This document shows positions 1,952 to 20,123 of a stretch of DNA of 22,130 bases, in pieces (positions within the stretch are counted from its first letter, which is position 1; each line of letters opens with the position of its first letter). This DNA is from Lachnospiraceae bacterium (lineage in GTDB: Bacteria; Bacillota; Clostridia; Lachnospirales; Lachnospiraceae), in NCBI GenBank assembly GCA_900759225.1, contig CAAEUM010000141.1:1-22130 (forward strand). The letters run 5' to 3'. Under the pieces are notes generated by a model, which was not told where the DNA came from, made no database searches, and saw only the letters and a program-made list of their open reading frames with translations. A program made the translations under genes and the position numbers.

Positions 1952-1962
1952 CCGGTTTTATC

Positions 1963-2033
1963 GTAACAGCTCAGCTAAGGGGGCGTCTTCTTGTCCGGCT
2001 GCACTGGACAAGAAGCATCGGATGGACTGTTAT
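1963..2033. mobile_element. MITE-like palindromic element, copy 1 (71 bp)
   Basis: Non-coding. The left end GTAACAGCTCAG (1963-1974) and right end ACTGTTAT (2026-2033) form short imperfect terminal inverted repeats. The central hairpin is CTTCTTGTCC (1987-1996) paired with GGACAAGAAG (2006-2015); a G-T and a G-C pair extend it to a CTGCA loop. It is flanked by GTTTTATC (1955-1962) and GTTTTATT (2034-2041), a 7/8 direct repeat consistent with an 8-bp target-site duplication. Compared with copy 3 it lacks the CGCCCTCTGAA block near the right end. It lies between the hsp20 stop codon and the hsp20 terminator. Confidence 0.8.
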
Positions 2034-2039
2034 GTTTTA

Positions 2040-2474
2040 TTAGAGAATATTTATATATTTCGGGCTTTCCTCTACCTTGGGTGTTTCTTTGGGGATAGAT
2101 AAGGTTAAAAGGCCATTTTCAAAGGATGCTTTAATATCTTCCTGGCGCAGCTCTTCACCCACAAAGAAGCTGCGTTTGCAGGATGCATTGAAACGTTCCT
2201 GATGAAGAAGTTTTCCCTTTGCGGCATCTTCCTGAGAATTAGCCAGTGCGGAGATGGTGAGATAGCCGTCCTTTAATTCAGCCTGTATCTCGTCCTTTTT
2301 AAAGCCGGGAAGCTCGATTTCCAGAATATAATTTCCATCCCTTTCTCTGATATCAGTGCGCATGATCGGGAGCTTCTTTACCTCTTCTTTTTTATCCGGT
2401 GTATTAGAAAAGAAAGAGTCATTGAAAATATCATCAAATAAGTTTAATCCATAATTTCTTGGTATCAGCATCAT
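2040..2474 (-). CDS. Hsp20/alpha-crystallin family small heat-shock protein
   Basis: 144 residues, typical for an Hsp20. The N-terminal NLFDDIFND stretch, an alpha-crystallin domain at about residues 38-130 (ELPGFKKDEIQAELKDGYLTI, then FENGLLTLSIPK) and a C-terminal IxI-type tail (INIL) are all visible. It acts as an ATP-independent cytoplasmic holdase that binds unfolding proteins. An upstream ATG at 2516 is in frame, but AAGGAGG sits 8 bases before the ATG at 2474, so that start is preferred; the next codon is also ATG. The gene has its own consensus promoter with an overlapping CIRCE operator (2568-2594), implying HrcA-controlled heat induction. MITE copy 1 follows the stop codon, then a terminator. 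No groEL or dnaK lies in the window. Confidence 0.95.
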   Translation of the reverse strand: MMLIPRNYGLNLFDDIFNDSFFSNTPDKKEEVKKLPIMRTDIRERDGNYILEIELPGFKKDEIQAELKDGYLTISALANSQEDAAKGKLLHQERFNASCKRSFFVGEELRQEDIKASFENGLLTLSIPKETPKVEESPKYINIL

Positions 2475-2552
2475 GATCATATCCTCCTTCAGCTGCAGCC
2501 TGCTTTGCGCATACAACAGGCAAAATGCAGTTTGTTAAGTTGTTATATGTGT

Positions 2553-2580
2553 ATTATAGCACTGTTGTTAGCACTGTCAA
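2553..2580 (-). promoter_or_regulatory. Sigma-A promoter of hsp20
   Basis: On the minus strand, perfect -35 TTGACA (2580-2575) and perfect -10 TATAAT (2558-2553) are separated by 16 bases. The untranslated leader to the chosen start is about 70 bases. The -35 box lies inside the CIRCE element. Confidence 0.88.
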
Positions 2581-2594
2581 TAGATGAGTGCTAA
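2568..2594 (-). promoter_or_regulatory. CIRCE operator (HrcA binding site) of hsp20
   Basis: The minus strand reads TTAGCACTC, nine bases, then CAGTGCTAA. The CIRCE consensus is TTAGCACTC-N9-GAGTGCTAA, so 17 of 18 arm bases match. It overlaps the -35 box, where HrcA binding would block RNA polymerase. Confidence 0.9.
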
Positions 2595-2620
2595 TTTATT
2601 TGTAAAAAATTTATGAAATG

Positions 2621-2714
2621 GTAACAGTCAGTCAGGGGACATCTTCTTAGTGCGGCTGCACCGCACTAAGAAGCATCGGATGGACATCAATTTTCCCGCC
2701 CTCTGAACTTCTAC
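2621..2714. mobile_element. MITE-like palindromic element, copy 2 (94 bp)
   Basis: Non-coding. The left end is GTAACAGTCAG (2621-2631) and the right end CTCTGAACTTCTAC (2701-2714). The central hairpin is a perfect 13-bp stem CTTCTTAGTGCGG (2643-2655) / CCGCACTAAGAAG (2661-2673) with a CTGCA loop. It is flanked on both sides by ATGAAATG (2613-2620 and 2715-2722), a perfect 8-bp direct repeat. The stem differs from copies 1 and 3 on both arms in a compensating way. It lies about 27 bases upstream of the CIRCE/promoter of hsp20 and downstream of the DUF2007-like gene. Confidence 0.85.
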
Positions 2715-2737
2715 ATGAAATGCTGATCTAGATATAT

Positions 2738-2995
2738 TTACAGGGAATTAAGAACTTGACGGGCCCTGTGTTCATCCGTTTTTTTCACAGACAGGCTGTA
2801 GATGGAGCGCATGGGGCCCCCTCTTGACAGGGCAATCGTATCTCCTCTTAAGTTGTTGAAGGACAGCCGCATCTGATTATTTGGGCTGGTATCTTTATAG
2901 GGGATTCGATGGTCGGAAAGGAGGTTCTTCGCTCTGAAAAAGTCCTCCATTTTTAAGGTGGAATATACTTCGATATAGCTGCCGAAAAGTGCCAT
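2738..2995 (-). CDS. Small DUF2007-like (putative signal-transducing) protein
   Basis: 85 residues, no membrane segment, no cysteine. The N-terminal pattern VYSTLKMEDFFRAKNLLSDHRIPYK resembles DUF2007-type proteins (V-Y-x-T, an acidic/hydrophobic helix, then a short-loop-GIP-like segment), a family named as putative prokaryotic signal-transducing proteins without a proven function. AAGGAGG precedes the ATG at 2995 by about 5 bases, and a consensus promoter lies upstream at 3031-3059. The gene is monocistronic, facing away from the sigma-factor gene and separated from hsp20 by MITE copy 2. It is real by RBS, promoter and codon pattern; the family call is tentative. Confidence 0.7.
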   Translation of the reverse strand: MALFGSYIEVYSTLKMEDFFRAKNLLSDHRIPYKDTSPNNQMRLSFNNLRGDTIALSRGGPMRSIYSLSVKKTDEHRARQVLNSL

Positions 2996-3030
2996 GGAGA
3001 CCTCCTTTGAAAACGGGAATTGTTACACTT

Positions 3031-3059
3031 ATTATAGAAAAAATGCTGTGCTGTTTCAA
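3031..3059 (-). promoter_or_regulatory. Sigma-A promoter of the DUF2007-like gene
   Basis: On the minus strand, -35 TTGAAA (3059-3054), a 17-base spacer and a perfect -10 TATAAT (3036-3031), about 30 bases upstream of the start codon. Confidence 0.8.
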
Positions 3060-3096
3060 TGATTTTTTCATAAATGCGTGTTCATGTTTTACCCCC

Positions 3097-3126
3097 TTGA
3101 CCCTGGTATTTGAAAATAAGTAAAAT
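3097..3126 (+). promoter_or_regulatory. Possible promoter of the sigma/anti-sigma pair
   Basis: TTGACC (3097-3102), an 18-base spacer and TAAAAT (3121-3126). The match is fair and the leader would be about 85 bases. If the sigma factor controls itself, the true promoter may follow a different consensus. Confidence 0.35.
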
Positions 3127-3215
3127 AATAAGAAGGAAGGTGAGTGAAAAATCTGTGTCAGACAGAATAGTAAAGTGAAGGGACATGGAAAATCAAGCTT
3201 AACACAGGAGGCATT

Positions 3216-3770
3216 ATGACGGACAAGCAGTTGATCAGGCTTTTAAAGCAGGAACCGGAGCAGGGGCTTGAGACAGTGATGGAGCTCTATGGAGGGGCAC
3301 TAAAGACAATCTGTCAAAACTGTCTGACAGGCGGCACAAGGGAAGATGTGGAGGAAGCTGTTTCAGATGTATTGGCGGCTATATGGAGGGCGGCTGGACG
3401 GTTTGATGCAAAAAAGGGCACTTCCTTTAAGAGCTATTGCTATGGGATCGCCAGGAAAACCGCGCTCACAAAGCGAAGCAATCTTATGAAAACAGCCCAG
3501 GTACTTCCGCTGGATGAGGATATACTGGAAATACAGGATGAGACTGAAAGCTTACTGGAGCACAGGGAGGAGGAGCGGATCCTTCATCAGGTGATCGACA
3601 GTCTGCCGGAGCCCCAGCGCTCTGTATTTATCCTGCGCTATTTTTATTTTTTCCCCATTAAGGAGATCGCAGCATGGCTGGGGATTGCGGATAAGAGGGT
3701 TGAAAACCTTTTATTCCGGGGAAAGCAGAAACTGAAAACCAGCCTGATCGAGAGGGGGATTGAGCGATGA
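3216..3770 (+). CDS. RNA polymerase sigma factor, sigma-70 family, ECF-like
   Basis: 184 residues with only the two essential sigma regions. Region 2 is at about residues 22-90 (EDVEEAVSDVLAAIWRAAGRFD, then FKSYCYGIARKTALTKRS). Region 4 is at about residues 125-180 (LPEPQRSVFILRYFY, PIKEIAAWLGI, VENLLFRGKQKLK, a helix-turn-helix for the -35 element). This is the size and layout of extracytoplasmic-function sigma factors. A CAGGAGG site lies just upstream of the ATG. The stop overlaps the start of the next gene in ATGA (3767-3770), so the two products are translationally coupled, as is usual for a sigma factor and its anti-sigma factor. The signal sensed is unknown. Confidence 0.88.
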   Translation: MTDKQLIRLLKQEPEQGLETVMELYGGALKTICQNCLTGGTREDVEEAVSDVLAAIWRAAGRFDAKKGTSFKSYCYGIARKTALTKRSNLMKTAQVLPLDEDILEIQDETESLLEHREEERILHQVIDSLPEPQRSVFILRYFYFFPIKEIAAWLGIADKRVENLLFRGKQKLKTSLIERGIER

Positions 3771-4870
3771 AGAGGATAACGGAGCTATATCATGATCTGG
3801 AGAAGCAGGAATTATATAAGGACGGGGAGGAACTGGTAAATCCGCTGGGAGCATCCCTGGGGAAAGATGAGAGAGCGCGCATTTTGAAAAGGGCCTGCAG
3901 CCTTATAGAGGAAGAAACTCCAAAGCGCCGCCGGTTTCAGGGAAAGAGGCTGGTACTTCTGGCAGCCGCCGCAGTGATTGCTCTGGGCGCATTGACAGTC
4001 AGCGCAGGGGAGTATGTGCGTATTCGGCCGGAGCTGGCAGAGTTTCTTGGGATTTCCTCTGAGGCACCAGTGCCTGAGATTAATAAGGTTGCAATGGACT
4101 TGGAAACGGCCTCGGATAGCGGTAAAAACTGGAAACTGGAGGATGAGGAAAATGGCCTTAAGGTCAGCGCCAAACAGGTTGTAAATGACGGAGAGATTGT
4201 TTATATTTATTTCCAGTTTCAGCTTCCGGAGGGGATTTATGAGAAAAGCACAGAGGAACATAAAAAGCTGTTTCATTTTGACCAGTGCAGCTGCCGGATG
4301 GAAAATGGGGAAGAAAGGGCACTTGGCGGCGTGATTTTAAAGGAGAGCAGGAGCAATCCGGGGGACTATTATGCAGTCGGAGAGATAGATTCTCTTCAGG
4401 CTTTTGAGGGGAAACAGGAAATCTCGATCATCCTTCAGGATTTTGGTTATGTGGATGCAACGGAGGATTCCACAAAATGGGTGGATGTGATAGAAGGACA
4501 GTGGGAGTTAAACTGGGAGCTGGAATATAAAAATGCGGCAGTCAATTATCCGGTTAAAAAAGAAATCCCGGTTGAGACAGGTACGGTTACACTTGAAAAT
4601 ATCCGGGTATCACCCCTGTCGGTAAAGGTGACAGCCACTACAGACAGCAAAGAATCGGTGCTCAGCGACCAGATTTCCATTGAGGGGATCCTTATGGAAG
4701 ATGGCGTCCATAAGGAAGTGATGAACTGCGGCTATGTGGGGCCGGAAGAGGATAAGCTGGTTATGGGCTGGGTGTTTGAGGACATGATACCCGTTGAGAA
4801 AATAAAAGGAATCATGGTAAATGGGGAGGAATTGATGCTTTCGGGGGAAAGGGAAAAAACGGAGGAGTAG
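3767..4870 (+). CDS. Single-pass membrane protein, probable anti-sigma factor (DUF4179-like)
   Basis: 367 residues. A cytoplasmic N-terminal part of about 60 residues, rich in charged residues and containing KDERARILKRACSLIEEE, precedes one membrane helix at about residues 61-81. About 280 extracytoplasmic residues follow. This layout and the ATGA overlap with the sigma gene match membrane anti-sigma proteins of Clostridia that carry DUF4179-like outer domains. I infer that the N-terminal part holds the sigma factor at the membrane until an outside signal acts. The classic zinc anti-sigma motif HxxxCxxC is not present. No signal cleavage motif is evident. Assignment rests mainly on context and topology. 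Confidence 0.7.
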   Translation: MKRITELYHDLEKQELYKDGEELVNPLGASLGKDERARILKRACSLIEEETPKRRRFQGKRLVLLAAAAVIALGALTVSAGEYVRIRPELAEFLGISSEAPVPEINKVAMDLETASDSGKNWKLEDEENGLKVSAKQVVNDGEIVYIYFQFQLPEGIYEKSTEEHKKLFHFDQCSCRMENGEERALGGVILKESRSNPGDYYAVGEIDSLQAFEGKQEISIILQDFGYVDATEDSTKWVDVIEGQWELNWELEYKNAAVNYPVKKEIPVETGTVTLENIRVSPLSVKVTATTDSKESVLSDQISIEGILMEDGVHKEVMNCGYVGPEEDKLVMGWVFEDMIPVEKIKGIMVNGEELMLSGEREKTEE

Positions 4871-4964
4871 GGGGCGCATTTCCCAAGCAAAATTATGCTA
4901 TGATTTTACCCGGATTTATGTTAAAATGGTGGGAAGAGTTTGCGGGGTGGGGAAAGTGCGCCCC
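4871..4964 (+). promoter_or_regulatory. Long inverted repeat around a possible pyrF promoter or leader
   Basis: GGGGCGCATTTCCC (4871-4884) pairs with GGGAAAGTGCGCCCC (4950-4964) with only one bulged base, across a 65-base interval. The interval contains an extended -10-like TGcTATGAT (4896-4904) and TAAAAT (4922-4927) without good -35 boxes. No T-run follows the right arm, so it is not a simple terminator. It directly follows the anti-sigma stop and precedes the pyrF RBS. Confidence 0.5.
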
Positions 4965-4996
4965 GAAACAGATGCAGAATATGAGGAGGGAATGCT

Positions 4997-5914
4997 ATGA
5001 TTAGCCAGTTGATTGAAAAAATAAAAAAGACAAAAGCACCGGTATGCGTAGGTCTTGACCCTATGCTGTCCTATGTGCCGGAGCACTTAGTAAAAAAATC
5101 ATTCCAGGAGTACGGGGAAACATTGGAAGGGGCAGCAGATGCCATCTGGAATTTTAATAAAGAAATTATTGACGCTACCTGGGATCTGATCCCTTCTGTA
5201 AAGCCTCAGATTGCAATGTATGAGCAGTTTGGCATTGAAGGCTTAAAGGTATATGAAAAGACCGTTTCCTATTGTCAGGAAAAAGGCCTTGTAGTGATCG
5301 GGGATGCTAAGAGGGGGGATATCGGCTCCACCTCCGCAGCCTATGCAACCGGACATCTGGGCCAGGTACAGGTGGGAAGCAAAACCTACAGCGGTTTCCA
5401 CATCGACTTCCTTACAGTGAACCCATACCTTGGAACAGACGGTGTAAAGCCATTTGTGGATGTATGTAACAGCCAGGATAAGGGCCTGTTTATCCTTGTA
5501 AAAACCTCCAACCCATCCAGCGGCGAATTCCAGGACCGTTTAATTGATGGCCGTCCTCTCTATGAGTGGGTAGCAGAAAAGGTAGTAGAGTGGGGCGCTT
5601 CCTCCATGGACGGCGATTACAGCAACGTAGGCGCTGTAGTAGGGGCGACCTATCCGGAAATGAGCGAGGTTTTAAGAAAGCTGATGCCAAAGACCTATTT
5701 CCTTGTACCTGGATACGGCGCACAGGGAGGCACAGCGGCAGACTTAAAGCACTGCTTCAATGAAGACGGTCTTGGTGCAGTTGTTAACTCATCCAGAGGC
5801 ATCATTGCTGCTTACCGCCAGGAAAAATACAAGAACTTCGGGCCGGAGCATTTTGCAGAGGCATCCAGGCAGGCAGTTCTTGACATGGTCGCAGATATCA
5901 ACAGTGTGCTGTAA
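4997..5914 (+). CDS. pyrF: Orotidine 5'-phosphate decarboxylase
   Basis: 305 residues, the length of the long (type 2) OMP decarboxylases. It converts orotidine monophosphate to UMP, the last step of UMP synthesis, in the cytoplasm. The first strand is VCVGLDPML (residues 16-24). The catalytic D-K-x-x-D cluster is visible as D103-K105-D108 in IGDAKRGDIGST, and the phosphate-binding end of the barrel carries LVPGYGAQGGT and VVNSSRGI. The RBS GAGGAGGG lies 6-7 bases before the ATG. It is the first gene of the pyr operon. A gap of 134 bases to pyrK, much longer than the other gaps, is mostly filled by MITE copy 3. Confidence 0.97.
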   Translation: MISQLIEKIKKTKAPVCVGLDPMLSYVPEHLVKKSFQEYGETLEGAADAIWNFNKEIIDATWDLIPSVKPQIAMYEQFGIEGLKVYEKTVSYCQEKGLVVIGDAKRGDIGSTSAAYATGHLGQVQVGSKTYSGFHIDFLTVNPYLGTDGVKPFVDVCNSQDKGLFILVKTSNPSSGEFQDRLIDGRPLYEWVAEKVVEWGASSMDGDYSNVGAVVGATYPEMSEVLRKLMPKTYFLVPGYGAQGGTAADLKHCFNEDGLGAVVNSSRGIIAAYRQEKYKNFGPEHFAEASRQAVLDMVADINSVL

Positions 5915-5931
5915 AACACAGCAGGAAAAAA

Positions 5932-6011
5932 GTAACAGTTCAGCCCAGGGGCATCTTCTTGTCCGGTTGCACAGGACAAGAAGCATCGGATCTCGCCCTC
6001 TGAACTGTTAC
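5932..6011. mobile_element. MITE-like palindromic element, copy 3 (80 bp, intact)
   Basis: Best-preserved copy. Perfect 12-bp terminal inverted repeats GTAACAGTTCAG (5932-5943) / CTGAACTGTTAC (6000-6011) flank a central hairpin CTTCTTGTCC (5955-5964) / GGACAAGAAG (5974-5983). The 8-bp sequence GGAAAAAA sits immediately outside each end (5924-5931 and 6012-6019), a perfect target-site duplication. GTAA ends and 8-bp duplications are typical of IS66-family elements. No coding capacity. It separates pyrF from pyrK inside the operon. Confidence 0.9.
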
Positions 6012-6048
6012 GGAAAAAATCCGTAGAAACAGATAGAGGATGTAAGCA

Positions 6049-6837
6049 ATGGCAAAATTAAAAATGACAGCCACCGTTGTAAGCCAGAAACAGCTGGCAG
6101 ACGGGGTTTTTGACATGAGACTCCTGGCCCGGGAGATTGCAGGGCAGGCAGTGCCGGGACAGTTTGTATCCCTTTACAGCCAGGATGGTGCAAAGCTCCT
6201 TCCAAGGCCCATCAGCCTGTGCGGCATTGACAGGGAGCTGGGACAGCTGCGCCTTGTATACCGTATTGCAGGAGCAGGAACAGAAGAATTTTCCCATTTA
6301 AAAGAAGGGGACAGGATTGATGTTTTAGGGCCTCTGGGAAATGGCTTCCCGCTGGAGGCAGGAAAAAAATCCTTTTTGATCGGCGGCGGTATCGGAATCC
6401 CGCCTATGCTGGAGCTGGCAAAGCAGCTGCATGAATTAAACGGTGAAAAGGGGCTGGTACAGGCTGTGCTGGGCTACCGTGACAGCCAGATGTTCTTAAT
6501 GGATGAGTTTAAAGCATACGGTGATGTATATGCGGCTACTGAGGACGGAAGCGCCGGCACAAAGGGAAATGTGCTGGATGCGATCAGAGAAAAAGCGCTG
6601 GAGGCAGATGTGATCTATGCCTGCGGCCCAACCCCTATGCTGCGCGCCTTAAAGGCATATGCGGCAGAGAAGAACATACCCTGCTGGCTGTCACTGGAGG
6701 AGAAAATGGCCTGCGGCGTAGGCGCCTGCCTTGCCTGTGTCTGCCAGTCAAAGGAAAAGGACGAGCATTCCCAGGTACATAACAAGCGTGTCTGCAAGGA
6801 CGGTCCGGTATTTCTGGCGGATGAGATCGAATTGTGA
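6049..6837 (+). CDS. pyrK: Dihydroorotate dehydrogenase electron-transfer subunit
   Basis: 262 residues, standard for PyrK. It carries FAD and a [2Fe-2S] cluster and passes electrons from dihydroorotate oxidation by PyrD to NAD+. The flavin-binding RPISLCGID lies at residues 53-61 and the nucleotide-binding LIGGGIGIPPM at 110-120. The cluster cysteines are C222, C227, C230 in ACGVGACLAC and probably C249. The GAGGA RBS is about 9 bases before the ATG. It lies 17 bases upstream of pyrD, as expected for the PyrDB-PyrK heterotetramer. MITE copy 3 ends 38 bases before its start. Confidence 0.96.
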   Translation: MAKLKMTATVVSQKQLADGVFDMRLLAREIAGQAVPGQFVSLYSQDGAKLLPRPISLCGIDRELGQLRLVYRIAGAGTEEFSHLKEGDRIDVLGPLGNGFPLEAGKKSFLIGGGIGIPPMLELAKQLHELNGEKGLVQAVLGYRDSQMFLMDEFKAYGDVYAATEDGSAGTKGNVLDAIREKALEADVIYACGPTPMLRALKAYAAEKNIPCWLSLEEKMACGVGACLACVCQSKEKDEHSQVHNKRVCKDGPVFLADEIEL

Positions 6838-6854
6838 CAGGAGGCGGCTGACAG

Positions 6855-7757
6855 ATGAATATGAGTGTAAAAATTGCCGGAGTGGAATTTAAGAATCCGG
6901 TTATGGAAGCGTCAGGAACCTTTGGCTCCGGCATGGAATACAGCGAATTTGTTGACTTAAGCCAGCTGGGCGCAGTTGTCACGAAAGGTGTGGCAAACGT
7001 GCCCTGGCCGGGAAATCCCACACCCAGGATCGCAGAAACCTACGGCGGAATGATCAATGCCATCGGCCTGCAGAATCCGGGGATCGATGTGTTTGCAAAA
7101 AGGGATATTCCCTTCTTAAAGAAATATGATACAAAAATTGTAGTTAATGTCTGCGGAAAAACAACCGAGGACTACATTGAGGTTGTGGAGCGCCTGGGAG
7201 ACGAGCCGGTGGATATGCTGGAAATTAATATTTCCTGTCCAAATGTAAAGGAGGGCGGCATTGCCTTCGGTCAGGATCCAAAGGCAGTGGAGGCTATCAC
7301 AAAGGCAGTAAAGGCCCATGCAAAACAGCCCATCATTATGAAATTAAGCCCCAATGTTACAGATATTACAGTGATGGCAAAGGCGGCAGAGGCAGGGGGT
7401 GCAGACGCCCTTTCCCTGATCAATACCATCACAGGCATGAAAATTGATATCCACAAGCGTACCTTTGCCCTGGCAAATAAGACCGGCGGCCTGTCAGGTC
7501 CTGCTGTTAAGCCGGTGGCAGTGCGCATGGTATATCAGGTAGCACAGGCAGTAAAGCTTCCTATCATTGGCATGGGAGGAATTCAGAATGGTGATGACGC
7601 CCTGGAATTTATTCTGGCAGGCGCTACGGCAGTGGCAGTGGGCACTGCCAATTTCCACAATCCATATGCTACCATTGAGACAGTCAATGGAATTAAAACG
7701 TATATGGAAAAATATGGAGTGACAGATATCAATGATCTGATCGGTGCAGTGTGTTAA
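6855..7757 (+). CDS. pyrD: Dihydroorotate dehydrogenase, class 1B catalytic subunit
   Basis: 300 residues. It oxidises dihydroorotate to orotate with FMN in the cytoplasm. The N-terminal FKNPVMEASGTFGSG (from residue 12), the lysine in VVTKGV (K44) and the active-site cysteine C128 in EINISCPNVKEGG mark class 1, and the adjacent pyrK marks subclass 1B, which uses NAD+. The C-terminal GMGGIQNGDDALEFILAGA is the FMN phosphate-binding region. An AGGAGG site lies 10 bases before the ATG. Confidence 0.97.
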   Translation: MNMSVKIAGVEFKNPVMEASGTFGSGMEYSEFVDLSQLGAVVTKGVANVPWPGNPTPRIAETYGGMINAIGLQNPGIDVFAKRDIPFLKKYDTKIVVNVCGKTTEDYIEVVERLGDEPVDMLEINISCPNVKEGGIAFGQDPKAVEAITKAVKAHAKQPIIMKLSPNVTDITVMAKAAEAGGADALSLINTITGMKIDIHKRTFALANKTGGLSGPAVKPVAVRMVYQVAQAVKLPIIGMGGIQNGDDALEFILAGATAVAVGTANFHNPYATIETVNGIKTYMEKYGVTDINDLIGAVC

Positions 7758-7778
7758 AAAGAAAGAGGAGTGGGAACA

Positions 7779-8456
7779 ATGGAAAGCTATAAGCAGGAAT
7801 TTATTGAATTTATGGTAGAGAGCAACGTGTTAAAGTTTGGTGATTTCACCCTGAAAAGCGGAAGGAAATCCCCGTTCTTTATGAATGCAGGAAGCTATGT
7901 AACAGGAACCCAGTTAAAGAAGCTGGGCGAATATTACGCAAAGGCGATCCATGACAATTTCGGCCTTGATTTTGATGTGCTGTTCGGGCCGGCTTATAAG
8001 GGAATCCCCTTAAGTGTTGCTACTACCATGGCGATCAGCGAATTATATGGAAAGGATATCCGCTACTGCTCTAACCGCAAGGAAGTAAAGAATCATGGAG
8101 ATGCAGGAATCCTTCTTGGAAGTCCTATTAAGGACGGTGACCGGGTTATGATCATTGAGGATGTAACCACCTCAGGAAAGTCCATTGAGGAAACCTTCCC
8201 GATCATCAAGGCTCAGGGCAATGTGGAGATCAAGGGCCTGATCGTATCCTTAAACCGCATGGAGCGCGGAAAGGGGACAAAGAGCGCCCTGGATGAGATC
8301 AAGGATCTCTATGGTTTCCCAACAGCGGCTATTGTATCTATGGCAGATGTAGTAGAGCATCTTTATAACCATAGCTGCCAGGGACGGGTTGTAATTGATG
8401 ATACGATCAAAACAGCCATTGACGCTTATTATGCACAGTATGGTGCAGAAGCATAA
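7779..8456 (+). CDS. pyrE: Orotate phosphoribosyltransferase
   Basis: 225 residues. It joins orotate with PRPP to make orotidine monophosphate, which PyrF then decarboxylates. The PRPP-binding motif RVMIIEDVTTSGKS is at about residues 122-135, with the LKSGRKSPFF loop near residues 25-34 and GPAYKGIPL near 70-78. A GTG at 7770 is in frame but overlaps the GAGGAG ribosome binding site, so the ATG at 7779 is the start. The gap from pyrD is 21 bases. It completes the pyr set in this operon; carA/B, pyrB and pyrC are not in the window. Confidence 0.96.
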   Translation: MESYKQEFIEFMVESNVLKFGDFTLKSGRKSPFFMNAGSYVTGTQLKKLGEYYAKAIHDNFGLDFDVLFGPAYKGIPLSVATTMAISELYGKDIRYCSNRKEVKNHGDAGILLGSPIKDGDRVMIIEDVTTSGKSIEETFPIIKAQGNVEIKGLIVSLNRMERGKGTKSALDEIKDLYGFPTAAIVSMADVVEHLYNHSCQGRVVIDDTIKTAIDAYYAQYGAEA

Positions 8457-8502
8457 AGCTTATGATCGTTAAAAAAGGGAAACAGGCAGAGAGGCGATGA
8501 AA

Positions 8503-8652: not shown

Positions 8653-8666
8653 CAGGCGGGACTGCC

Positions 8667-9460: not shown

Positions 9461-9475
9461 ATGGGAGTGGCTGTT

Positions 9476-13332: not shown

Positions 13333-14253
13333 ATGAAACTGAATGCAAAAAAAGTAATAAGTCTGATGACTGCTGGGCTTCTGGCAGCAGCTTCACTGAC
13401 AGCCTGCTCTGGCGGTGCAGAAGAGACAACAGCAGCAAAGGAAGCAGCTTCCGGTGCAGAGACAGGTGCAGCAGCAGAGAAGGAAGAAGCAGCTTCCGGT
13501 GAAAAGAAAACCTTAAAGGTTGCCATGGAGTGCGCTTATGCTCCTTACAACTGGACACAGCCGGATGATTCCAACGGAGCAGTGCCCATCAAGGACAGCA
13601 ATGAGTATGCTTACGGCTATGATGTTATGATGGCAAAGAAGATCTGTGAGGAGCTGGGTTATGACCTGGAGATCGTACGCCTTGACTGGGATTCCCTGAT
13701 ACCGGCAGTGAGCACAGGACAGGTTGACTGTGTAATTGCAGGTCAGTCTATTACTTCTGAGCGCCTTCAGGCCGTTGATTTTACAGAGCCTTATTACTAC
13801 GCTTCGATTGTTACACTTGTAAAAGAGGGAAGCAAGTATGCAGAGGCAAAGAGCGTGGCAGATTTAGCAGGAGCTACCTGTACCTCCCAGCAGAGCACCA
13901 TCTGGTACAACACCTGCCTGCCTCAGATTGAGGGGGCAAATATCCTGGCAGCAACTGCAAACGCTCCGGATATGCTGATGTCCTTAAACGCAGACAAGTG
14001 CGACCTGGTTGTTACAGACCAGCCAACAGGAAAGGGAGCCCTGGTTGCTTACCCTGAATTTAAGATGCTTGAGTTTGGCGGCGGCGAGAACGATTTCCAG
14101 GTAACAGATGAGGATATTAATATTGGTATTTCATTAAAGAAGGGGAACACAGAGCTGAAGGAAGCCATTGACAGTGTGCTTACAAAGATGACAAAGGACG
14201 ATTTCTCCAAGATGATGGATGAAGCCATTGCTGTACAGCCTCTGGCAAATTAA
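13333..14253 (+). CDS. Amino acid ABC transporter substrate-binding lipoprotein
   Basis: 306 residues. The lipoprotein signal is clear: basic MKLNAKK, a hydrophobic core, then the lipobox LTAC with lipidated C25. A low-complexity linker rich in A, E, G, T (about residues 27-58) precedes a family 3 solute-binding domain. AYGYDVMMAKKICEELG, DSLIPAVSTGQVDCVIAGQSIT and SERLQAVDFTEPYYYA carry the usual ligand-contact region, including the arginine (SERL) that contacts the amino acid carboxylate. It is anchored outside the membrane and delivers a polar amino acid to the permease encoded next. The exact amino acid is not evident. It follows a promoter and leader at 13168-13332; AGGAGG precedes the ATG. 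Confidence 0.95.
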   Translation: MKLNAKKVISLMTAGLLAAASLTACSGGAEETTAAKEAASGAETGAAAEKEEAASGEKKTLKVAMECAYAPYNWTQPDDSNGAVPIKDSNEYAYGYDVMMAKKICEELGYDLEIVRLDWDSLIPAVSTGQVDCVIAGQSITSERLQAVDFTEPYYYASIVTLVKEGSKYAEAKSVADLAGATCTSQQSTIWYNTCLPQIEGANILAATANAPDMLMSLNADKCDLVVTDQPTGKGALVAYPEFKMLEFGGGENDFQVTDEDINIGISLKKGNTELKEAIDSVLTKMTKDDFSKMMDEAIAVQPLAN

Positions 14254-14269
14254 GTAAGGAGAGGGAAAA

Positions 14270-15064
14270 ATGCCGACAGATTTTTTTGGCCGTGTAATGG
14301 TCGTATTTAACAGATATGGTATGTCAATGATCCAGGGCGCAGGCGTCAGCCTTCAGATTGCCCTGGTGGGAACCGTTGTAGGCTGTATCATTGGTTTTGC
14401 AGCCGGTGTGATTCAGACGATCCCCTCAGAAAAAGGGGATAATCCCATAAAACGGGTAGTCCTCTGGGTGGCAAAGCTGATCCTCAATGTTTATGTGGAA
14501 TTTTTCAGAGGCACGCCCATGATGGCCCAGGCCATGTTTATTTACTACGGGCTTCTGCCTATGATGGGGATCAATCTGTCTATGTGGCAGGCTGCTTACT
14601 TTATTCTGTCGATTAATACAGGCGCTTACATGGCTGAGACGGTCCGGGGCGGTATCCTTTCCATTGATGCAGGACAGACCGAGGGCGCAAAAGCCATTGG
14701 AATGACCCATGTACAGACTATGATCTATGTGATCCTGCCTCAGGCGCTGCGCAACATTATGCCTCAGATTGGAAATAACCTGATTATCAATATTAAGGAC
14801 AGCTGTGTGCTTTCCGTAATTGGCGTTGCGGAGCTTATGTATAAGACAAAGGCAGCAGCCGGAGCATTGTATCTGAACTTTGAAACCTATGCCATCACCA
14901 TGATCATGTACTTTATCATGACCTTCACCTGCTCCAGGCTTCTTCGCATCTGGGAGAACCATATGGACGGGGCAGACAATTTCGACCTTGCAACAACGGA
15001 CACCCTGGCATATACAAGCGGAATGTTCCGTTATCCCGGCGACAAGAAAAAGGAGGATGCATGA
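14270..15064 (+). CDS. Amino acid ABC transporter permease
   Basis: 264 residues with about five membrane segments. The HisM/GlnP-type signature is visible: [55 protein letters not shown] (the EAA loop that docks on the ATPase) and [24 protein letters not shown]. It forms the membrane channel of the importer. A GTAAGGAGAGGG site precedes the ATG, 16 bases after the binding-protein gene. The stop TGA at 15062-15064 overlaps the ATG of the ATPase gene. Confidence 0.95.
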
Positions 15065-15807
15065 TGAACGGCGAAAGTATTTTGGAAATCCGTCATTTAA
15101 GTAAGACCTTCGGCACCAATCTGGTGCTAAAGGATATTGATTTTAAGGTAGACAGCGGGGATGTGACCTGTATCATCGGTGCTTCCGGCTCCGGAAAATC
15201 TACCCTTCTGCGCTGCTTAAACCTTCTTGAAACACCTACAACCGGTGAGATCTTATATCATGGCAGCAACATTGCTGACCGGAAGGTAAATGCACCTCAG
15301 TACCGCTCCCGGGTGGGAATGGTGTTCCAGAGCTTTAATCTGTTTAACAATATGACGGTTCTGGACAACTGCATGGTGGGACAGACCAAGGTGTTGAAAA
15401 AGGATAAGGAAGAGGCGAAAAAGCATGCCATGTACTATCTTGAAAAGGTAGGGATGGCCCCCTATATCAATGCAAAGCCAAAGCAGCTTTCCGGAGGGCA
15501 GAAGCAGCGCGTTGCCATTGCAAGAGCCCTTGCGATGGAGCCGGAGGTACTTCTGTTTGATGAGCCTACCTCAGCCCTTGATCCGCAGATGGTAGGCGAG
15601 GTTTTAGAGGTTATGCGGAAGCTGGCGTCTGAGGGCTTGACTATGATCATTGTCACCCATGAAATGGCCTTCGCCAGGGATGTATCAAGCCATGTAGTAT
15701 TTATGGCAGACGGTGTTATTGTGGAGGAGGGGAAACCCAGGGAGATTTTTGAAGATCCGCAGAAACACCAGACAAAAGAATTTTTAAGCCGCTTTATGCG
15801 TGGATAA
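15061..15807 (+). CDS. Amino acid ABC transporter ATP-binding protein
   Basis: 248 residues. The Walker [10 protein letters not shown] (residues 40-48), Q-loop VFQSFNLF near 88-95, signature LSGGQKQR (143-150), Walker B VLLFDE with E168, and switch H in VTHEMA are all present, so it should be an active ATPase. It belongs to the polar amino acid (GlnQ/HisP) class and powers the importer. Two ATG codons in tandem (15061 and 15064) follow AGGAGG with 4- and 7-base spacing; the second may be used. It is the last gene of the operon, closed by a strong terminator. Confidence 0.96.
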
Positions 15808-15826
15808 GGACGGCTGTGAAGTGAAG

Positions 15827-15859
15827 ATCGGCTCCTGTGCAGAACAGGGCCGATTTTTT
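15827..15859 (+). terminator. Rho-independent terminator of the ABC importer operon
   Basis: ATCGGC-T-CCTGT (15827-15838) pairs with ACAGGGCCGAT (15844-15854) with one bulged T and a short loop, followed by six T (15854-15859). Strong stem plus U-tract. Confidence 0.92.
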
Positions 15860-16077
15860 AATATCATAGGAACGTTCCGGACAGGCAAACCTGTATGAAT
15901 TTGCCGTACTAGCATCTTTGAAGTTAATTGACACTGAAAAAATAAAAAGTCTCTGTTTAACAGGGATAAGGCTTAAAAAGATAAAAATAATAAAAGAATC
16001 CATAAAAAAAGGAAAAATCTGGATAGATATAGGCGTTTTGTACAAAAATCAATGAAAAATATCTTGCATACTGTACA
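15860..16077. other. Intergenic AT-rich region upstream of the dsdA promoter
   Basis: Together with the flanking sites, this belongs to the 388-base gap between the ABC ATPase and D-serine ammonia-lyase genes. I see no gene here. It is strongly A-rich from about 15930 to 16030. It holds two TGTACA palindromes (16039-16044 and 16072-16077), 33 bases apart, the second touching the -35 box of the dsdA promoter. A lone TTGACA at about 15918-15923 has no matching -10. Confidence 0.5.
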
Positions 16078-16105
16078 TTGAAACTTTACAAATGTTAAGT
16101 ATAAT
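16078..16105 (+). promoter_or_regulatory. Promoter of the D-serine operon
   Basis: TTGAAA (16078-16083), a 16-base spacer and perfect TATAAT (16100-16105). The leader to the start codon is about 85 bases. Confidence 0.85.
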
Positions 16106-16131
16106 AAAATATATGAAAAGTAATACTTAAC
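16094..16131. promoter_or_regulatory. Operator-like inverted repeat over the -10 box of the D-serine operon
   Basis: Perfect 9-bp arms GTTAAGTAT (16094-16102) and ATACTTAAC (16123-16131), centre to centre 29 bases. The left arm overlaps the -10 box and the right arm lies downstream of the transcription start. A bound regulator would block transcription. The nearby XRE-cupin protein is a candidate; this is inference. Confidence 0.55.
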
Positions 16132-16195
16132 ACCGGGTGTGAAACAATAACAATGGTTGTGAATTTTGCAGCTGAACGAAAGAGAGGAGATTCTT

Positions 16196-17545
16196 ATGGC
16201 ATTAAAAGAGTATGCAGCGAAAATGGTACAGGAGCAGCCAATCTTAAAGGAGATTTCCGAACAGAAAGAAACCGTATGGATCAATGATAAGTACCTTCCC
16301 TTTGCAATGACAGATGGCCTGTGCCAGCTGATCGTTTCAGATGAGGACATTCTGGACGCAGAGAAGCGTCTGGAGCGCTTTGCGCCATTTATTGAAAAAT
16401 GTTTCCCGGAAACAAAGGAGACAAAGGGTATGATCGAATCCCCGCTTAGAGCGATTCCGTCTATGCAGAAAGCACTGGAACAGCAGTATGGATGTACAAT
16501 TTCCGGCAATCTGTTTCTGAAGATGGACAGCCATCTTGCTGTGGCAGGTTCTGTAAAAGCAAGAGGCGGCATTTATGAGGTGTTAAAGCATGCAGAGGAT
16601 TTGGCCATTGCAGCCGGAAAACTGAAGGTAACGGATAATTATGAAAAGCTGGCAGAGGATGAGATGAAGGAGTTCTTTGGACAGTATACAGTCCAGGTGG
16701 GTTCCACCGGAAACCTGGGAATGTCCATTGGCATCAGCAGTGCTGCCATTGGCTTTAAGGTAAAGGTACATATGTCTGCGGATGCCCGCCAGTGGAAGAA
16801 GGATCTGCTTCGCAGCAAGGGCGTGGAAGTGATCGAATACGCAGATGATTATTCAAAGGCAGTTGCAGAGGGAAGAAAGCTGTCAGATGCAGACCCTATG
16901 AGCTACTTCGTAGATGATGAAAAATCTGTAAATCTTTTCCTGGGATATGCAGTAGCTGCTTCCAGACTGAAAAAGCAGTTTGAAGAACAGGGCGTTGCTG
17001 TAGATGAGGACCATCCTCTGATCGTCTATATTCCTACTGGTGTAGGCGGAGCTCCCGGCGGAGTTGCCTACGGCTTAAAGCGTCTGTTTAAGGACAGTGT
17101 ACACTGCTTCTTTGCAGAGCCTACCTTGTGTCCTTCTGTACTGCTCGGATTTGCAACCGGCTATTACGAGAAGGTAAATGTACATGATTTTGGAATTGAA
17201 GGCATTACAGAGGCGGACGGACTGGCCTGTGCAAGCCCATCCGGCTTTGTTACAAGAATTGATTCAAACCTTGTATCCGGTGATTTTACAGTGAAGGATG
17301 GCAGGCTGTATGACTTTATGAGACTGCTGCATGAATCAGAGGATATCCTCATTGAACCATCCAGCTGTGCAGCATTTGCCGGACCTGTTAACCTGGAAGG
17401 TGCAGAGGCAGGAAAAGAATATCTGGAAAAACAGGGCCTTACCAGTGAGCAGATGCAGAATGCAACCCAGATCTGCTGGGCAACCGGCGGCCGACTGGTT
17501 CCGGATGAGATCTGGAAAGAGTATCTGACAAAGCAGATTGACTGA
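16196..17545 (+). CDS. dsdA: D-serine ammonia-lyase (D-serine dehydratase)
   Basis: 449 residues, close to E. coli DsdA (442). It is a PLP enzyme that converts D-serine to pyruvate and ammonia in the cytoplasm. The PLP lysine is K121 in LAVAGSVKARGG, the phosphate-binding loop is GSTGNLG at 169-175, and LKMDSHLAVAGS is characteristic of this subgroup. An ATG-less upstream extension to 16166 is in frame, but GAGGAG lies 6-7 bases before the ATG at 16196, which is used. It is followed after 20 bases by a GntP-type permease. Together they form a D-serine uptake and breakdown operon under the promoter at 16078-16105. Confidence 0.95.
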   Translation: MALKEYAAKMVQEQPILKEISEQKETVWINDKYLPFAMTDGLCQLIVSDEDILDAEKRLERFAPFIEKCFPETKETKGMIESPLRAIPSMQKALEQQYGCTISGNLFLKMDSHLAVAGSVKARGGIYEVLKHAEDLAIAAGKLKVTDNYEKLAEDEMKEFFGQYTVQVGSTGNLGMSIGISSAAIGFKVKVHMSADARQWKKDLLRSKGVEVIEYADDYSKAVAEGRKLSDADPMSYFVDDEKSVNLFLGYAVAASRLKKQFEEQGVAVDEDHPLIVYIPTGVGGAPGGVAYGLKRLFKDSVHCFFAEPTLCPSVLLGFATGYYEKVNVHDFGIEGITEADGLACASPSGFVTRIDSNLVSGDFTVKDGRLYDFMRLLHESEDILIEPSSCAAFAGPVNLEGAEAGKEYLEKQGLTSEQMQNATQICWATGGRLVPDEIWKEYLTKQID

Positions 17546-17565
17546 AAATAAAAGGGGGAAGAACT

Positions 17566-18909
17566 ATGAGTTCAACAACAATGGTTATTTTAGGTCTTGT
17601 TTTAGCAGTTGCGGTTCTGGTTTTATTTACCGTAAAATTGAAGATACATCCGTTCTTTGCTCTGATTGCAACCTCTGCAACCTTTGCGGTTGTTTCAGGC
17701 ATGGACATGCAGGAAATGTTAAGCGCTTTTACCAGCGGAATGGGCGGGACAACGGCCGATATCGGTCTTGTGATCGCACTGGGAACAGTTACCGGCACCC
17801 TTCTTGAGAAATCAGGTGCTGCAGAGACTATGGCAAAAACCATTTTAAAGATCACCGGAAAGAAGCATGCTGCTTTGGGACTGGCAATCACCGGATATTT
17901 TGTATCCATTCCTGTATTCTGTGATTCTGCCTTTGTTCTTCTCAGCCCCATTGCAAAAAGGCTTTCCAAGGACACAAAGATTTCCATGACAACCATGGCA
18001 GTTGCGCTGGCAATGGGTCTTCATGCAACCCACATGTTTGTGCCGCCGACACCGGGGCCTCTGGCAGTTGCAGGAATTTTGAACGCAGACCTTGGTATGG
18101 TAATTCTGTTTGGCGCTATGGTATCAATTCCGGTTATGCTGGTTGGCTACTTTGCCTCTCTGGCAGCAGGGAAAAAGTATTATTATCTCCCGGAGATCGA
18201 GGAGACTGCTCCTTCAGAAAATGGAAAGCAGCCCAGCGCATTTGCGGCATTTCTTCCAATCCTGGTCCCTATTTTTCTGATGCTGTTAAAAACCATCGGG
18301 GATATGGTAGCCTCTGAGAATGTGCTTCTCTCTGTTCTGGATGTGATCGGAACCCCGGCTGTAGCTCTTTTGATCGGCCTTTTGCTTGCAGCCTATACCT
18401 ATCATCAGATCCATCCGGAAGATAAGGATGCATGGAGCTTTGACGGCGTAGTAGCCGACTCTTTAAAGACAGCCGGCCAGATTGTCCTGATCGTAGGTGC
18501 AGGCGGTGCCTTCGGCGGTGTTTTAAAGGCCTCCTCCCTGCAGGCGATCCTGACAGAGGCATTCTCCGGACTGGCAATCGGTATCCTAGCTCCGTTCCTC
18601 ATTGGATTTATCTTTAGAACCTGTGTTGGCTCTGCAACCATTGCCATGGTAACAGCGGCGACAATGATAACACCTCTCATTGATATCCTTGGATTTGGCA
18701 CACCGATGGGCAGAGTGATCGCAATGCTGGCATGTGCGGCAGGCGGTATGATGGTATTCCATGGAAATGATGACTTCTTCTGGGTAACTGCAACTACATC
18801 CAAGATGGATACGTCCATTGCCTATAAGACAATTCCGATCATCAGTGTACTGCAGTCCCTGACAGCACTGGCAGTTGTATTTGTATTAAGCCTGGTATTT
18901 CTGCACTAA
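17566..18909 (+). CDS. GntP family permease, probable D-serine transporter (DsdX-like)
   Basis: 447 residues, about 12 hydrophobic segments. GntP-family features include GLHATHMFVPPTPGPLAVAGIL in the middle, IPVFCDSAFVLLSPI and, near the C-terminus, FRTCVGSATIAMVTAATMI and FHGNDDFFWVTA. The family moves gluconate-like sugar acids or, for DsdX, D-serine by proton symport. Location directly after dsdA on the same transcript supports D-serine; sequence alone would not separate it from gluconate permeases. GGGGGAAG lies about 5 bases before the ATG. A terminator follows at 18936-18975. Confidence 0.9.
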   Translation: MSSTTMVILGLVLAVAVLVLFTVKLKIHPFFALIATSATFAVVSGMDMQEMLSAFTSGMGGTTADIGLVIALGTVTGTLLEKSGAAETMAKTILKITGKKHAALGLAITGYFVSIPVFCDSAFVLLSPIAKRLSKDTKISMTTMAVALAMGLHATHMFVPPTPGPLAVAGILNADLGMVILFGAMVSIPVMLVGYFASLAAGKKYYYLPEIEETAPSENGKQPSAFAAFLPILVPIFLMLLKTIGDMVASENVLLSVLDVIGTPAVALLIGLLLAAYTYHQIHPEDKDAWSFDGVVADSLKTAGQIVLIVGAGGAFGGVLKASSLQAILTEAFSGLAIGILAPFLIGFIFRTCVGSATIAMVTAATMITPLIDILGFGTPMGRVIAMLACAAGGMMVFHGNDDFFWVTATTSKMDTSIAYKTIPIISVLQSLTALAVVFVLSLVFLH

Positions 18910-18935
18910 ATAATAGAAATAAGTATGTTAGAGAG

Positions 18936-18975
18936 TACGGCAATTTCCTTCTGTGGGAACTGCCGTATTTCTTAT
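18936..18975 (+). terminator. Terminator of the D-serine operon
   Basis: TACGGCA (18936-18942) pairs with TGCCGTA (18961-18967); after one mismatch the inner TTTCC/GGGAA pairs continue the stem (one G-U), followed by the T-rich TTTCTTAT. Confidence 0.75.
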
Positions 18976-19009
18976 ATAGCCAGAATGAAGCCGGAAATTT
19001 TTTGGGCCC

Positions 19010-19038
19010 TTGTCCTTGTTCGGGAGACATGGTAAAAT
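19010..19038 (+). promoter_or_regulatory. Promoter of the XRE-cupin regulator gene
   Basis: TTGTCC (19010-19015), a 17-base spacer and TAAAAT (19033-19038), about 35 bases upstream of the start codon. It lies after the D-serine operon terminator, so the regulator is expressed separately. Confidence 0.65.
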
Positions 19039-19072
19039 AGACCTTAGAAAACCAGAAACAGGAGAAGTGAAA

Positions 19073-19624
19073 ATGGATTTAAATATAGGTGCAAAAATTT
19101 TGAAATACAGAACGCAGCATAGGCTGAGCCTGAGGGAGTTGGCAGAAAAAACGGGAGTTACTGCTTCTATGATCAGCCAGATTGAAAATAATGCAGTTAA
19201 CCCTTCGATCAATACCTTAAAGCTGCTGTCGGATGCACTTGATTTTCCTCTGTATGTGCTGTTTCAGGAGGAAAATAATCCGGAGAAGGAGCTGATCGTC
19301 CGCAGGGGAGAATACCGTACCCTTGGAAACGGACAGAGCGAGGTATCCTATAATCTGCTCACAGCCAATACAAAAGGTGACATTGAGTTTGTTATGATGG
19401 TGATTCCGGCAGGAACAGTTACTGCGGACAGGGAGCGGGCCCATCAGGGGGAAGAAACCGCTTATGTAGAGCGCGGCAGTGTCTATGTTTCTCTGAACAG
19501 TGAAGAATTTCTGCTGAATGAGGGGGATGCAGTCAGGATCCCTGCTGGTACGGAGCACCGATGGTTTAACAGGGACACTGCGGAAGCGAGGGTTATTTTT
19601 GCAGTGACACCGCCTACGTTTTAG
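19073..19624 (+). CDS. XRE family transcriptional regulator with C-terminal cupin domain
   Basis: 183 residues. The N-terminal helix-turn-helix is at about residues 6-62 (ILKYRTQHRLSLRELAEKTG, then ASMISQIENNAVNPSINTLKLL). The C-terminal cupin is at about residues 105-178 (IPAGTVTADRERAHQGEETAYVERGSVYV, then NEGDAVRIPAGTEHRWFNRD). The architecture is that of small regulators that sense a metabolite in the cupin barrel. Upstream in-frame codons from 19010 lack an RBS, while CAGGAG lies 8 bases before the ATG at 19073. It sits just after the D-serine operon in the same direction with its own promoter, so it is the likely local regulator of dsdA and the permease, binding perhaps the inverted repeat at 16094-16131. 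Ligand unknown. Confidence 0.9.
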   Translation: MDLNIGAKILKYRTQHRLSLRELAEKTGVTASMISQIENNAVNPSINTLKLLSDALDFPLYVLFQEENNPEKELIVRRGEYRTLGNGQSEVSYNLLTANTKGDIEFVMMVIPAGTVTADRERAHQGEETAYVERGSVYVSLNSEEFLLNEGDAVRIPAGTEHRWFNRDTAEARVIFAVTPPTF

Positions 19625-19659
19625 GAAACACAGGCGGTGGAGGATAAAGTGTGAGAAAA

Positions 19660-19694
19660 CAGGCAGCTGGCTGTAAACCGCTGCCTCTTATTTA
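19660..19694. terminator. Shared hairpin between convergent genes (bidirectional terminator)
   Basis: GGCAG (19662-19666) pairs with CTGCC (19681-19685), with an inner GG/CC pair. On the plus strand it is followed by TCTTATTTAT, on the minus strand by TGTTTTCTC. It lies between the regulator stop (19624) and the stop of the minus-strand small gene (19688). U-tracts are interrupted, so it is moderate. Confidence 0.5.
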
Positions 19695-19867
19695 TCCTCA
19701 GTGGCTCTGTAATTATAAAGGGCCTCATAGCTGTCAAGCTCTGCTTCTGACTGGGGCAGTGAGGGAATCAGTCCGGTGCAGTCGGTGGCGGAGCAGCTCT
19801 GGATATCTGTGTCAAAGGTATCCTTTTTCTTCGTTTTTGCCTGTTTTTTAGCTTCCCATTCTTTCAT
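19688..19867 (-). CDS. Small uncharacterised protein (59 residues)
   Basis: Starts MKEWEAKKQAKTKKKDTF, then contains DIQSCSATDCTGLIPSLP (C25 and C30) and ends with an acidic, tyrosine-containing tail ESYEALYNY-like (SEAELDSYEALYNY). No hydrophobic segment. A very good ribosome site, AGGAGG, lies 10 bases before the ATG at 19867. The basic N-terminus, the paired cysteines and the NPC-like loop are not a domain I can name. No clear promoter was found upstream. It converges on the XRE-cupin gene and shares a hairpin with it. The gene is likely real by RBS and sensible composition, but the function is unknown. Confidence 0.65.
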   Translation of the reverse strand: MKEWEAKKQAKTKKKDTFDTDIQSCSATDCTGLIPSLPQSEAELDSYEALYNYRATEDK

Positions 19868-19971
19868 TCAATAAATACCTCCTGTATAGGGATAGTATGA
19901 TCGGAAGAGCCTGCGCCATACAGGAAAAAAGCGGCAGCTATTTTGGAAAAGGGACTCTGTGGCTGAACGGA

Positions 19972-20123
19972 CGAACAGTTCAGCCTTGTATCTTCTTGTC
20001 CGCTGCAAGCGTCCAAGAAGCGCCGGGCGTCCGCCCTATGAAGATTTAGACAGTAAAACGTTTATGAAAGCAAGCTTTCAACACTTTTTTACTTTATAAA
20101 TCTTCGCATGGCTGAACTGTTAG
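19972..20123. mobile_element. MITE-like palindromic element, copy 4 (152 bp, divergent and composite)
   Basis: Terminal GAACAGTTCAG (19973-19983) and CTGAACTGTTA (20112-20122) match the ends of copy 3, but the outermost bases have changed. The left hairpin (CTTCTTG / CAAGAAG with an inner CGC/GCG and a TGCAA loop, 19992-20020) is related to the other copies. To its right lies an extra imperfect palindrome of 66 bases (20040-20105), with arms GAAGATTTA/TAAATCTTC and a core TGAAAGC/GCTTTCA. No 8-bp flanking duplication is visible. A further GGCTGAAC at 19961-19968 suggests an adjoining fragment. It lies upstream of the ftsH promoter. Confidence 0.7.

What the first reader, a model, noticed from the sequence alone, without database searches (positions are those of the whole stretch)
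1955..20123. Four-copy dispersed palindromic repeat family with three independent target-site duplications
Four related copies (1963-2033, 2621-2714, 5932-6011, 19972-20123) occur in 22 kb, all in the same orientation and all intergenic. Three have different 8-bp flanking repeats (7/8, 8/8 and 8/8 matches), which argues for separate insertion events rather than duplication. Four copies in a housekeeping region suggest a high genome-wide number. I do not recognise the family by name.
Basis: partly seen in the sequence, partly recalled or inferred. Interest (0 to 1): 0.75.

Follow-up and report, generated by a model that had tools for sequence, protein, structure and literature searches.

The report
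Tiny palindromic jumping DNA in Lachnospiraceae
The window carries four remnants of a family of very small, gene-less jumping DNA elements that is common in a group of gut bacteria; the kind of element is known, the family seems undescribed, and the two arms of its long hairpin keep changing together.

Summary
Four copies share the core TCTTCTT..AAGAAGCRYCGG (4 matches, shuffle expectation 0.00). Three are flanked by 8-bp repeats matching 7/8, 8/8 and 8/8; the fourth has none. They belong to a superfamily of non-autonomous transposons (MITEs) of Lachnospiraceae that I did not find described. The canonical element is 151 bp, with a ~16-bp terminal inverted repeat (GTAACAGTTCAGACGG) and three hairpins. 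Of 80 copies with both ends, 38 have flanks matching at least 7/8, about 1.1 expected. A covariance model built without the window finds copy 4 (E 1.5e-21) and copy 3 (2.5e-9). Copies 1-3 look like internal-deletion derivatives. The same ends flank other modules (134-289 bp) and 28-31-bp end-only units (24 of 46 with flanks at 7/8 or better, 0.5 expected). The long hairpin diverges fast with both arms changing together (193 two-sided changes, 54 in shuffles) and shows no wobble bias (40 G.T, 59 A.C of 1967 cells), which suggests a DNA-level process. The mobilising transposase was not found; IS66 copies share only GTAA and the 8-bp repeat.

The parts
1963..2033 (+). copy 1, 71 bp; hairpin A kept, hairpins B and C lost
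1955..1962 (.). left target duplication of copy 1, GTTTTATC
2034..2041 (.). right target duplication of copy 1, GTTTTATT (7/8)
2621..2714 (+). copy 2, 94 bp; hairpin A with a different, still paired stem; remnant of hairpin B and of the far arm of hairpin C (AATTTTCCCGCC)
   Evidence: comparison with full-length copies
2613..2620 (.). left target duplication of copy 2, ATGAAATG
2715..2722 (.). right target duplication of copy 2, ATGAAATG (8/8)
5932..6011 (+). copy 3, 80 bp, between pyrF and pyrK; intact terminal repeats, hairpin A
   Evidence: model hit E 2.5e-9
5924..5931 (.). left target duplication of copy 3, GGAAAAAA
6012..6019 (.). right target duplication of copy 3, GGAAAAAA (8/8)
19972..20123 (+). 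copy 4, 152 bp, diverged full-length element without target duplication
   Evidence: model hit E 1.5e-21
20040..20105 (+). hairpin C of copy 4 with the conserved tip AAAGCAAGCTTT
   Evidence: coordinates counted by hand

Best explanation
The four copies are members of a superfamily of MITEs. Shown: shared terminal inverted repeats, 8-bp AT-rich target duplications, no room for a transposase gene, mostly intergenic placement, tens of copies in several related genomes. Inferred: an unidentified cut-and-paste (DDE-type) transposase recognises the GTAAC[A/T]GTTCAG ends in trans and inserts the element. The canonical cargo is three hairpins: A (CTTCTTG..CAAGAAG), B (CATCGGAT-GTCC-ATCCGATG) and C (long variable stem with a conserved tip like TTACAAGCAAGCTTGA). 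After insertion copies shrink by deletions between short repeats, giving the 71-94-bp window copies and, elsewhere, end-only units near 30 bp (inferred). The two arms of hairpin C change quickly but together; the lack of wobble bias points to a DNA-level process such as template-switch copying between the arms rather than selection on a transcript (inferred).
For: Core found only at the four places. Flanks at 7/8 or better in 38 of 80 copies (3 of the 80 are the window's), 1.1 expected; in 97 of 209 end pairs, 1.5 expected. Model built without the window finds copies 3 and 4. Element absent before pyrK in 30 of 30 relatives. 7 of 48 elements centred in a predicted ORF, 88% of random points. 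Nested insertion L335 with 8/8 duplications for both elements. Exact ends in 40 of 150 sampled genomes of the family, up to 117 per genome. Hairpin C: 19 of 19 pairs with two-sided changes; G.T 40 and A.C 59 of 1967 cells, 104 elements (p 0.07 for equal numbers).
Against: No autonomous partner was found, so mobility rests on duplications. 42 of the 80 copies have flanks under 7/8 and 18 of them at most 4/8; 53 of 133 core matches lacked recognisable ends and were set aside. Window copy 4 has no duplication, copies 1 and 2 did not reach E 1e-8 with the model. For the copying idea: among the closest pairs single changes (28) are nearly as many as paired ones (35), as stepwise compensation would also give, and the alignment is fitted to the structure.
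Confidence: 0.9

Rival explanations
1. A conserved structured RNA (UTR element or small RNA); the covariation reflects selection on a transcript and the flanking repeats are incidental.
For: Strong two-sided covariation; low folding energies of the window copies (z -3.2 to -7.8).
Against: No Rfam match in the window or in 8 loci with full elements; G.T not above A.C; no orientation bias to tandem genes, 15 against 12; 8-bp duplications exact to the ends.
Confidence: 0.05
2. MITEs derived from an IS66-family element, whose transposase moves them.
For: Intact IS66 in these genomes also begin with GTAA and make 8-bp duplications (5 of 22 IS66 loci bounded); IS66 occurs in 8 of 12 MITE-bearing genomes; in Catenibacillus scindens an IS66 fragment abuts a MITE-type end GTAACAATTCAGCCCG (L149/L189).
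Against: IS66 ends continue GTAAGCGTCAAATAACAG or GTAAACGC.., not GTAACAGTTCAG; no MITE-type end was recognised at the other loci; 4 of the 12 genomes have no IS66 match although they carry MITEs.
Confidence: 0.25
3. The IS4-family element P0002 is the autonomous partner: its full form ends in MITE-type repeats outside its CAATGTCATT ends.
For: In L255 and L260 the IS lies between inverted 15-16-bp MITE-type ends with 7/8 outer 8-bp duplications.
Against: In 12 other copies it has 9-10-bp duplications directly at CAATGTC, and 6 of these lie in a GTTCA/TGAAC target of MITE-end type, so it looks like an IS that inserts into MITE ends. IS4-family duplications are reported near 10 bp (PMC2266710, passages). 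14 of 24 searched genomes, chosen for their MITEs, have no match.
Confidence: 0.15
4. REP-type palindromes spread by a RAYT (HUH) transposase.
For: Short intergenic palindromes in many copies.
Against: Terminal inverted repeats and 8-bp target duplications, which REP/REPIN elements are not known to make (recalled).
Confidence: 0.02

Closest known systems
Bacterial MITEs in general (review PMC10969869, passages read; RUP, BOX, ERIC, NEMIS recalled)
   Same: Short, gene-less, terminal inverted repeats, target duplications, intergenic, truncated variants common
   Different: Ends, cargo and hosts; none of the passages read mentions Lachnospiraceae, Clostridia or IS66; several unrelated cargoes share one kind of end
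Small dispersed repeats of cyanobacteria (Elhai et al. 2008, not held; seen only as a citation in PMC3116915; content recalled)
   Same: Mobile-looking units of about 20-30 bp
   Different: Here the 28-31-bp units are two fused terminal repeats and may be deletion remnants of 134-136-bp elements
REPINs (PMC3116915, passages)
   Same: Palindromic intergenic repeats in many copies
   Different: Here target duplications and DDE-type ends
IS66 family
   Same: GTAA start and 8-bp duplications
   Different: Rest of the ends differs; no cargo shared
ISs that insert into repeat ends (IS231 in Tn4430 ends, recalled; IS1111 in QMITE2, PMC10969869 passage)
   Same: An IS4-family IS recurrently found 15-16 bp inside such ends
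   Different: Other host, IS and target
Template switching in hairpin evolution (PMC8794818, abstract and introduction)
   Same: Paired multi-base changes of stem arms
   Different: Described for RNA genes; proposed here for a mobile DNA hairpin

Membership tests
MITE | Short element without transposase gene | tested here: met
   Canonical 151 bp; longest with duplication is 390 bp (a tandem pair); window copies 71-152 bp
MITE | Terminal inverted repeats | tested here: met
   GTAACAGTTCAGACGG / CCGTCTGAACTGTTAC; in the window clear for copy 3, degraded in copies 1, 2 and 4
MITE | Target-site duplication | tested here: met
   38 of 80 at 7/8 or better, 1.1 expected; window 3 of 4
MITE | Many dispersed, mostly intergenic copies | tested here: met
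   in relatives, not in the host genome itself
MITE | Autonomous partner with the same ends | tested here: inconclusive
   None found among IS66 or by end pairs over 400 bp; composites L255, L260 unresolved
IS66-derived element | Ends homologous to an IS66 element of the same genomes | tested here: not met
   Only GTAA shared
Known RNA family (Rfam 15) | Match at the gathering score | tested here: not met
   Window and 8 loci with full elements
REP/REPIN | Palindrome with GTAG- or CGTC-type tag (PMC3733652, abstract start) and no target duplication (recalled) | tested here: not met
   8-bp duplications
MITE | Transposition observed | not testable with these tools
   Needs strain comparison or a bench assay

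The most novel reading that the evidence does not exclude
The 28-31-bp units, little more than two fused terminal repeats, transpose as such and would be among the smallest DDE-type transposable units; and one unknown transposase drives a whole modular superfamily whose hairpin cargo is renewed by arm-to-arm copying during replication or transposition.
Probability: 0.15. Interest if true: 0.8.

Novelty: new member of a known kind. Interest (0 to 1): 0.5.

Why it matters
It is an abundant and apparently unnamed source of intergenic variation in Lachnospiraceae: 40 of 150 sampled genomes of the family carry exact ends, a few of them dozens. It offers many natural replicates in which deletion, nested insertion and joint change of palindrome arms can be measured, exposes an IS4-family element that recurs at one position inside these ends, and leaves a concrete target: the missing transposase.

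Tried and rejected
Structured RNA: no Rfam match, no wobble bias, no orientation bias. IS66 as parent: only GTAA and the 8-bp duplication shared; the IS66 fragment next to a MITE-type end in L149/L189 was set aside because its relatives end otherwise, but it is not explained away. Larger end pairs: 1405 bp in G005 and 711 bp in G001, 3330 bp in G012, about 1.7, 2.4 and 3.4 kb in G406 and about 3.7 kb in G041 show no duplication of 7/8 or better over the large span; the gene lists printed for L171, L173, L249, L324, L325, L368 and L369 show no obvious transposase by eye (no family search of them was run). The only pair over 400 bp with an 8/8 duplication, 1903 bp in L119, proved to be an IS4-family IS inside a MITE. 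Are the 30-bp units mobile? The 136-bp element holds TCTGAACTGTTAC twice, and a deletion between the two gives the 30-bp unit (read off); the 134-bp and 29-bp units of G105 are related in the same way with one mismatch. So deletion is the cheaper reading. Viral contigs: by eye 1 of 16 pattern hits (L010) was real. Plasmid and phage collections: no match for one 151-bp element. Of the loci, L020, L065, L066, L105 and L125 show no MITE end in the printed flank and look like chance (whose output was cut). Literature: GTAACAGTTCAG in 0 papers; some searches gave listings only, and I saw no description of this family in the rows shown (one search matched 2,788 papers, 8 shown). Absence from print is claimed for these searches alone.
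Full report
Observation. The window holds four copies of a palindromic repeat at the stated places, all on the + strand. The core TCTTCTT N8-26 AAGAAGCRYCGG is found 4 times and in none of 100 shuffles. Flanking 8-mers match 7/8, 8/8 and 8/8 for copies 1-3; copy 4 has none. At the same spacings such matches occur at 0.04-0.15% of window positions. Rfam has no match in the window.

Relatives. Of 133 core matches in these loci, one viral contig and the window, 80 have both ends with at most 3 mismatches; 53 were set aside. Of the 80 (3 are the window's), 38 have flanks matching at least 7/8 (19 of them perfect), against about 1.1 after re-pairing flanks among copies; 18 match at 4/8 or less. The commonest length is 151 bp (19 copies).

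Anatomy. From 59 elements of 148-156 bp, 35 under 90% identical were aligned. The consensus has the terminal repeat GTAACAGTTCAGACGG, hairpin A on the foot CTTCTTG/CAAGAAG, hairpin B CATCGGAT-GTCC-ATCCGATG, and hairpin C, a variable 19-pair stem around the tip TTACAAGCAAGCTTGA. 96.6% of cells pair (85.1% in shuffles) and 193 cells show two-sided changes (53.9 in shuffles); 19 of 19 pairs of hairpin C show such changes. The shuffle control does not remove relatedness, but sliding the partner by 1-3 columns drops pairing to 32-47%. Model R1 from this alignment, which does not hold the window, finds copy 4 at E 1.5e-21 and copy 3 at 2.5e-9; copies 1 and 2 did not reach 1e-8. Compared with the full element, copies 1-3 lack hairpin C, and copy 2 keeps a remnant of its far arm; I read them as deletion derivatives.

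DNA rather than RNA. In 104 distinct elements hairpin C has 1825 Watson-Crick cells, 40 G.T, 59 A.C and 43 others; in the 35-element alignment 604, 19, 28 and 14. A.C on one strand is G.T on the other, so neither strand shows the wobble tolerance expected of a selected transcript (p 0.07 and 0.24 for equal numbers). Hairpin C differs at 0.19 of cells even between elements at least 95% identical elsewhere, and L079 and L090 (95.1% elsewhere) differ at 6 pairs, all two-sided. Against a pure copying model, single changes in the closest class are 28 against 35 paired, and the alignment leans towards the model structure. Template switching is the simplest single-event source (PMC8794818, abstract and introduction); this step is inference.

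Placement and number. Of 48 elements with enough flank, 7 have their centre in a predicted ORF, against 88% of random points; the other 41 lie between tandem (27: 15 with, 12 against), divergent (11) or convergent (3) genes (crude ORF calling). None of 30 relatives shows a MITE end or core in the 190 bases before pyrK; 29 of them have pyrF next to pyrK in the fetched stretch (loci are the best 30 of 397 genomes searched). R1 matches 19 of 19 genomes tried, most chosen because they carry the core, with 3-145 matches each; one palindromic element can match on both strands, so these counts may be inflated about twofold, and only 150 candidates per genome were scored. The closest relative in the sample, G131, has 21 such matches but only 2 exact cores. 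In an even sample 40 of 150 genomes of the family hold GTAACWGTTCAGNNNNG, from 1 to 117 times; the reversed pattern gives at most 3 per genome. Chance can explain single hits, not the high counts.

A superfamily. The same ends with 8-bp duplications surround other modules: 136 bp in G003, 134 bp in G105, 165 bp in G012, 173-175 bp in G041, 201-202 bp in G050, 289 bp in G005, and very small units. Over 377 loci (1.92 Mb) 209 end pairs of 24-420 bp give 97 with flanks at 7/8 or better (1.5 expected); for 28-31 bp it is 24 of 46 (0.5 expected). Most of these loci were fetched because they carry such ends, so these are not genome rates. The duplications are AT-rich. In L335 a 108-bp element lies inside the end of a 44-bp one, each with an 8/8 duplication. 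The 30-bp units fit a deletion between the two TCTGAACTGTTAC repeats of a 136-bp parent, so they need not move themselves.

What moves it. Not found. IS66 elements share GTAA and the 8-bp duplication only. An IS4-family element (P0002; Pfam DDE_Tnp_1, NCBIfam NF033592) has CAATGTCATT ends. Of 40 loci examined (30, 10), 12 show both ends and a 9-10-bp duplication (L254, L256, L257, L265, L272, L277, L281, L336, L337, L339, L342, L343). Six of the 12 lie in a GTTCA/TGAAC target of MITE-end type, and in five of these the IS is 15-16 bp from the visible tip. In L255 and L260 it is instead bracketed by inverted MITE-type ends with 7/8 outer duplications. I read it mainly as an IS that hunts MITE ends; whether it also supplies the transposase is open.

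Verdict. The family was not found in the searches made here, but the kind is well known. The points of interest are the fast joint change of hairpin C, the end-only units and the missing transposase.

Noticed in passing
L254, L256, L257, L336, L337, L339: An IS4-family insertion sequence (CAATGTCATT ends, 9-10-bp duplication) sits inside GTTCA/TGAAC targets of MITE-end type; in five of the six it lies 15-16 bp from the visible tip.
   Followed up: partly
L255, L260: The same kind of IS is bracketed by inverted 15-16-bp MITE-type ends with 7/8 outer 8-bp duplications: a possible composite that moved as one unit.
   Followed up: partly
L265, L272, L277, L281: Four IS4-family copies about 40% identical to P0002 in one genome sit in near-identical flanks (duplication CCAACGAGCG or CCAAAGAGCG), so this relative seems to target another repeat.
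   Followed up: no
L044, L047, L052, L058, L087, L113 and others: A 19-bp hairpin module TACCCC(AA/GG)AGGGCACCTAG is inserted at CA/TC positions of some MITEs (17 occurrences in the loci then held, by eye all inside MITEs); a similar motif is part of the 202-bp element of G050.
   Followed up: partly
L187, L349, L303, L319 and other 28-31-bp units: End-only palindromes of 28-31 bp with perfect 8-bp duplications in several genomes.
   Followed up: partly
window 2553-2595: Upstream of the Hsp20-like gene a perfect TTGACA-16-TATAAT promoter on the - strand overlaps TTAGCACT..GAGTGCTAA, which looks like a CIRCE operator (recalled); copy 2 lies just upstream.
   Followed up: no
window 16166-19624: D-serine ammonia-lyase, a GntP-type permease and an XRE-cupin regulator side by side, an ordinary-looking D-serine utilisation cluster.
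   Followed up: no
L149 / L189 (Catenibacillus scindens): An IS66 transposase fragment is followed directly by a MITE-type end GTAACAATTCAGCCCG, unlike its relatives.
   Followed up: partly
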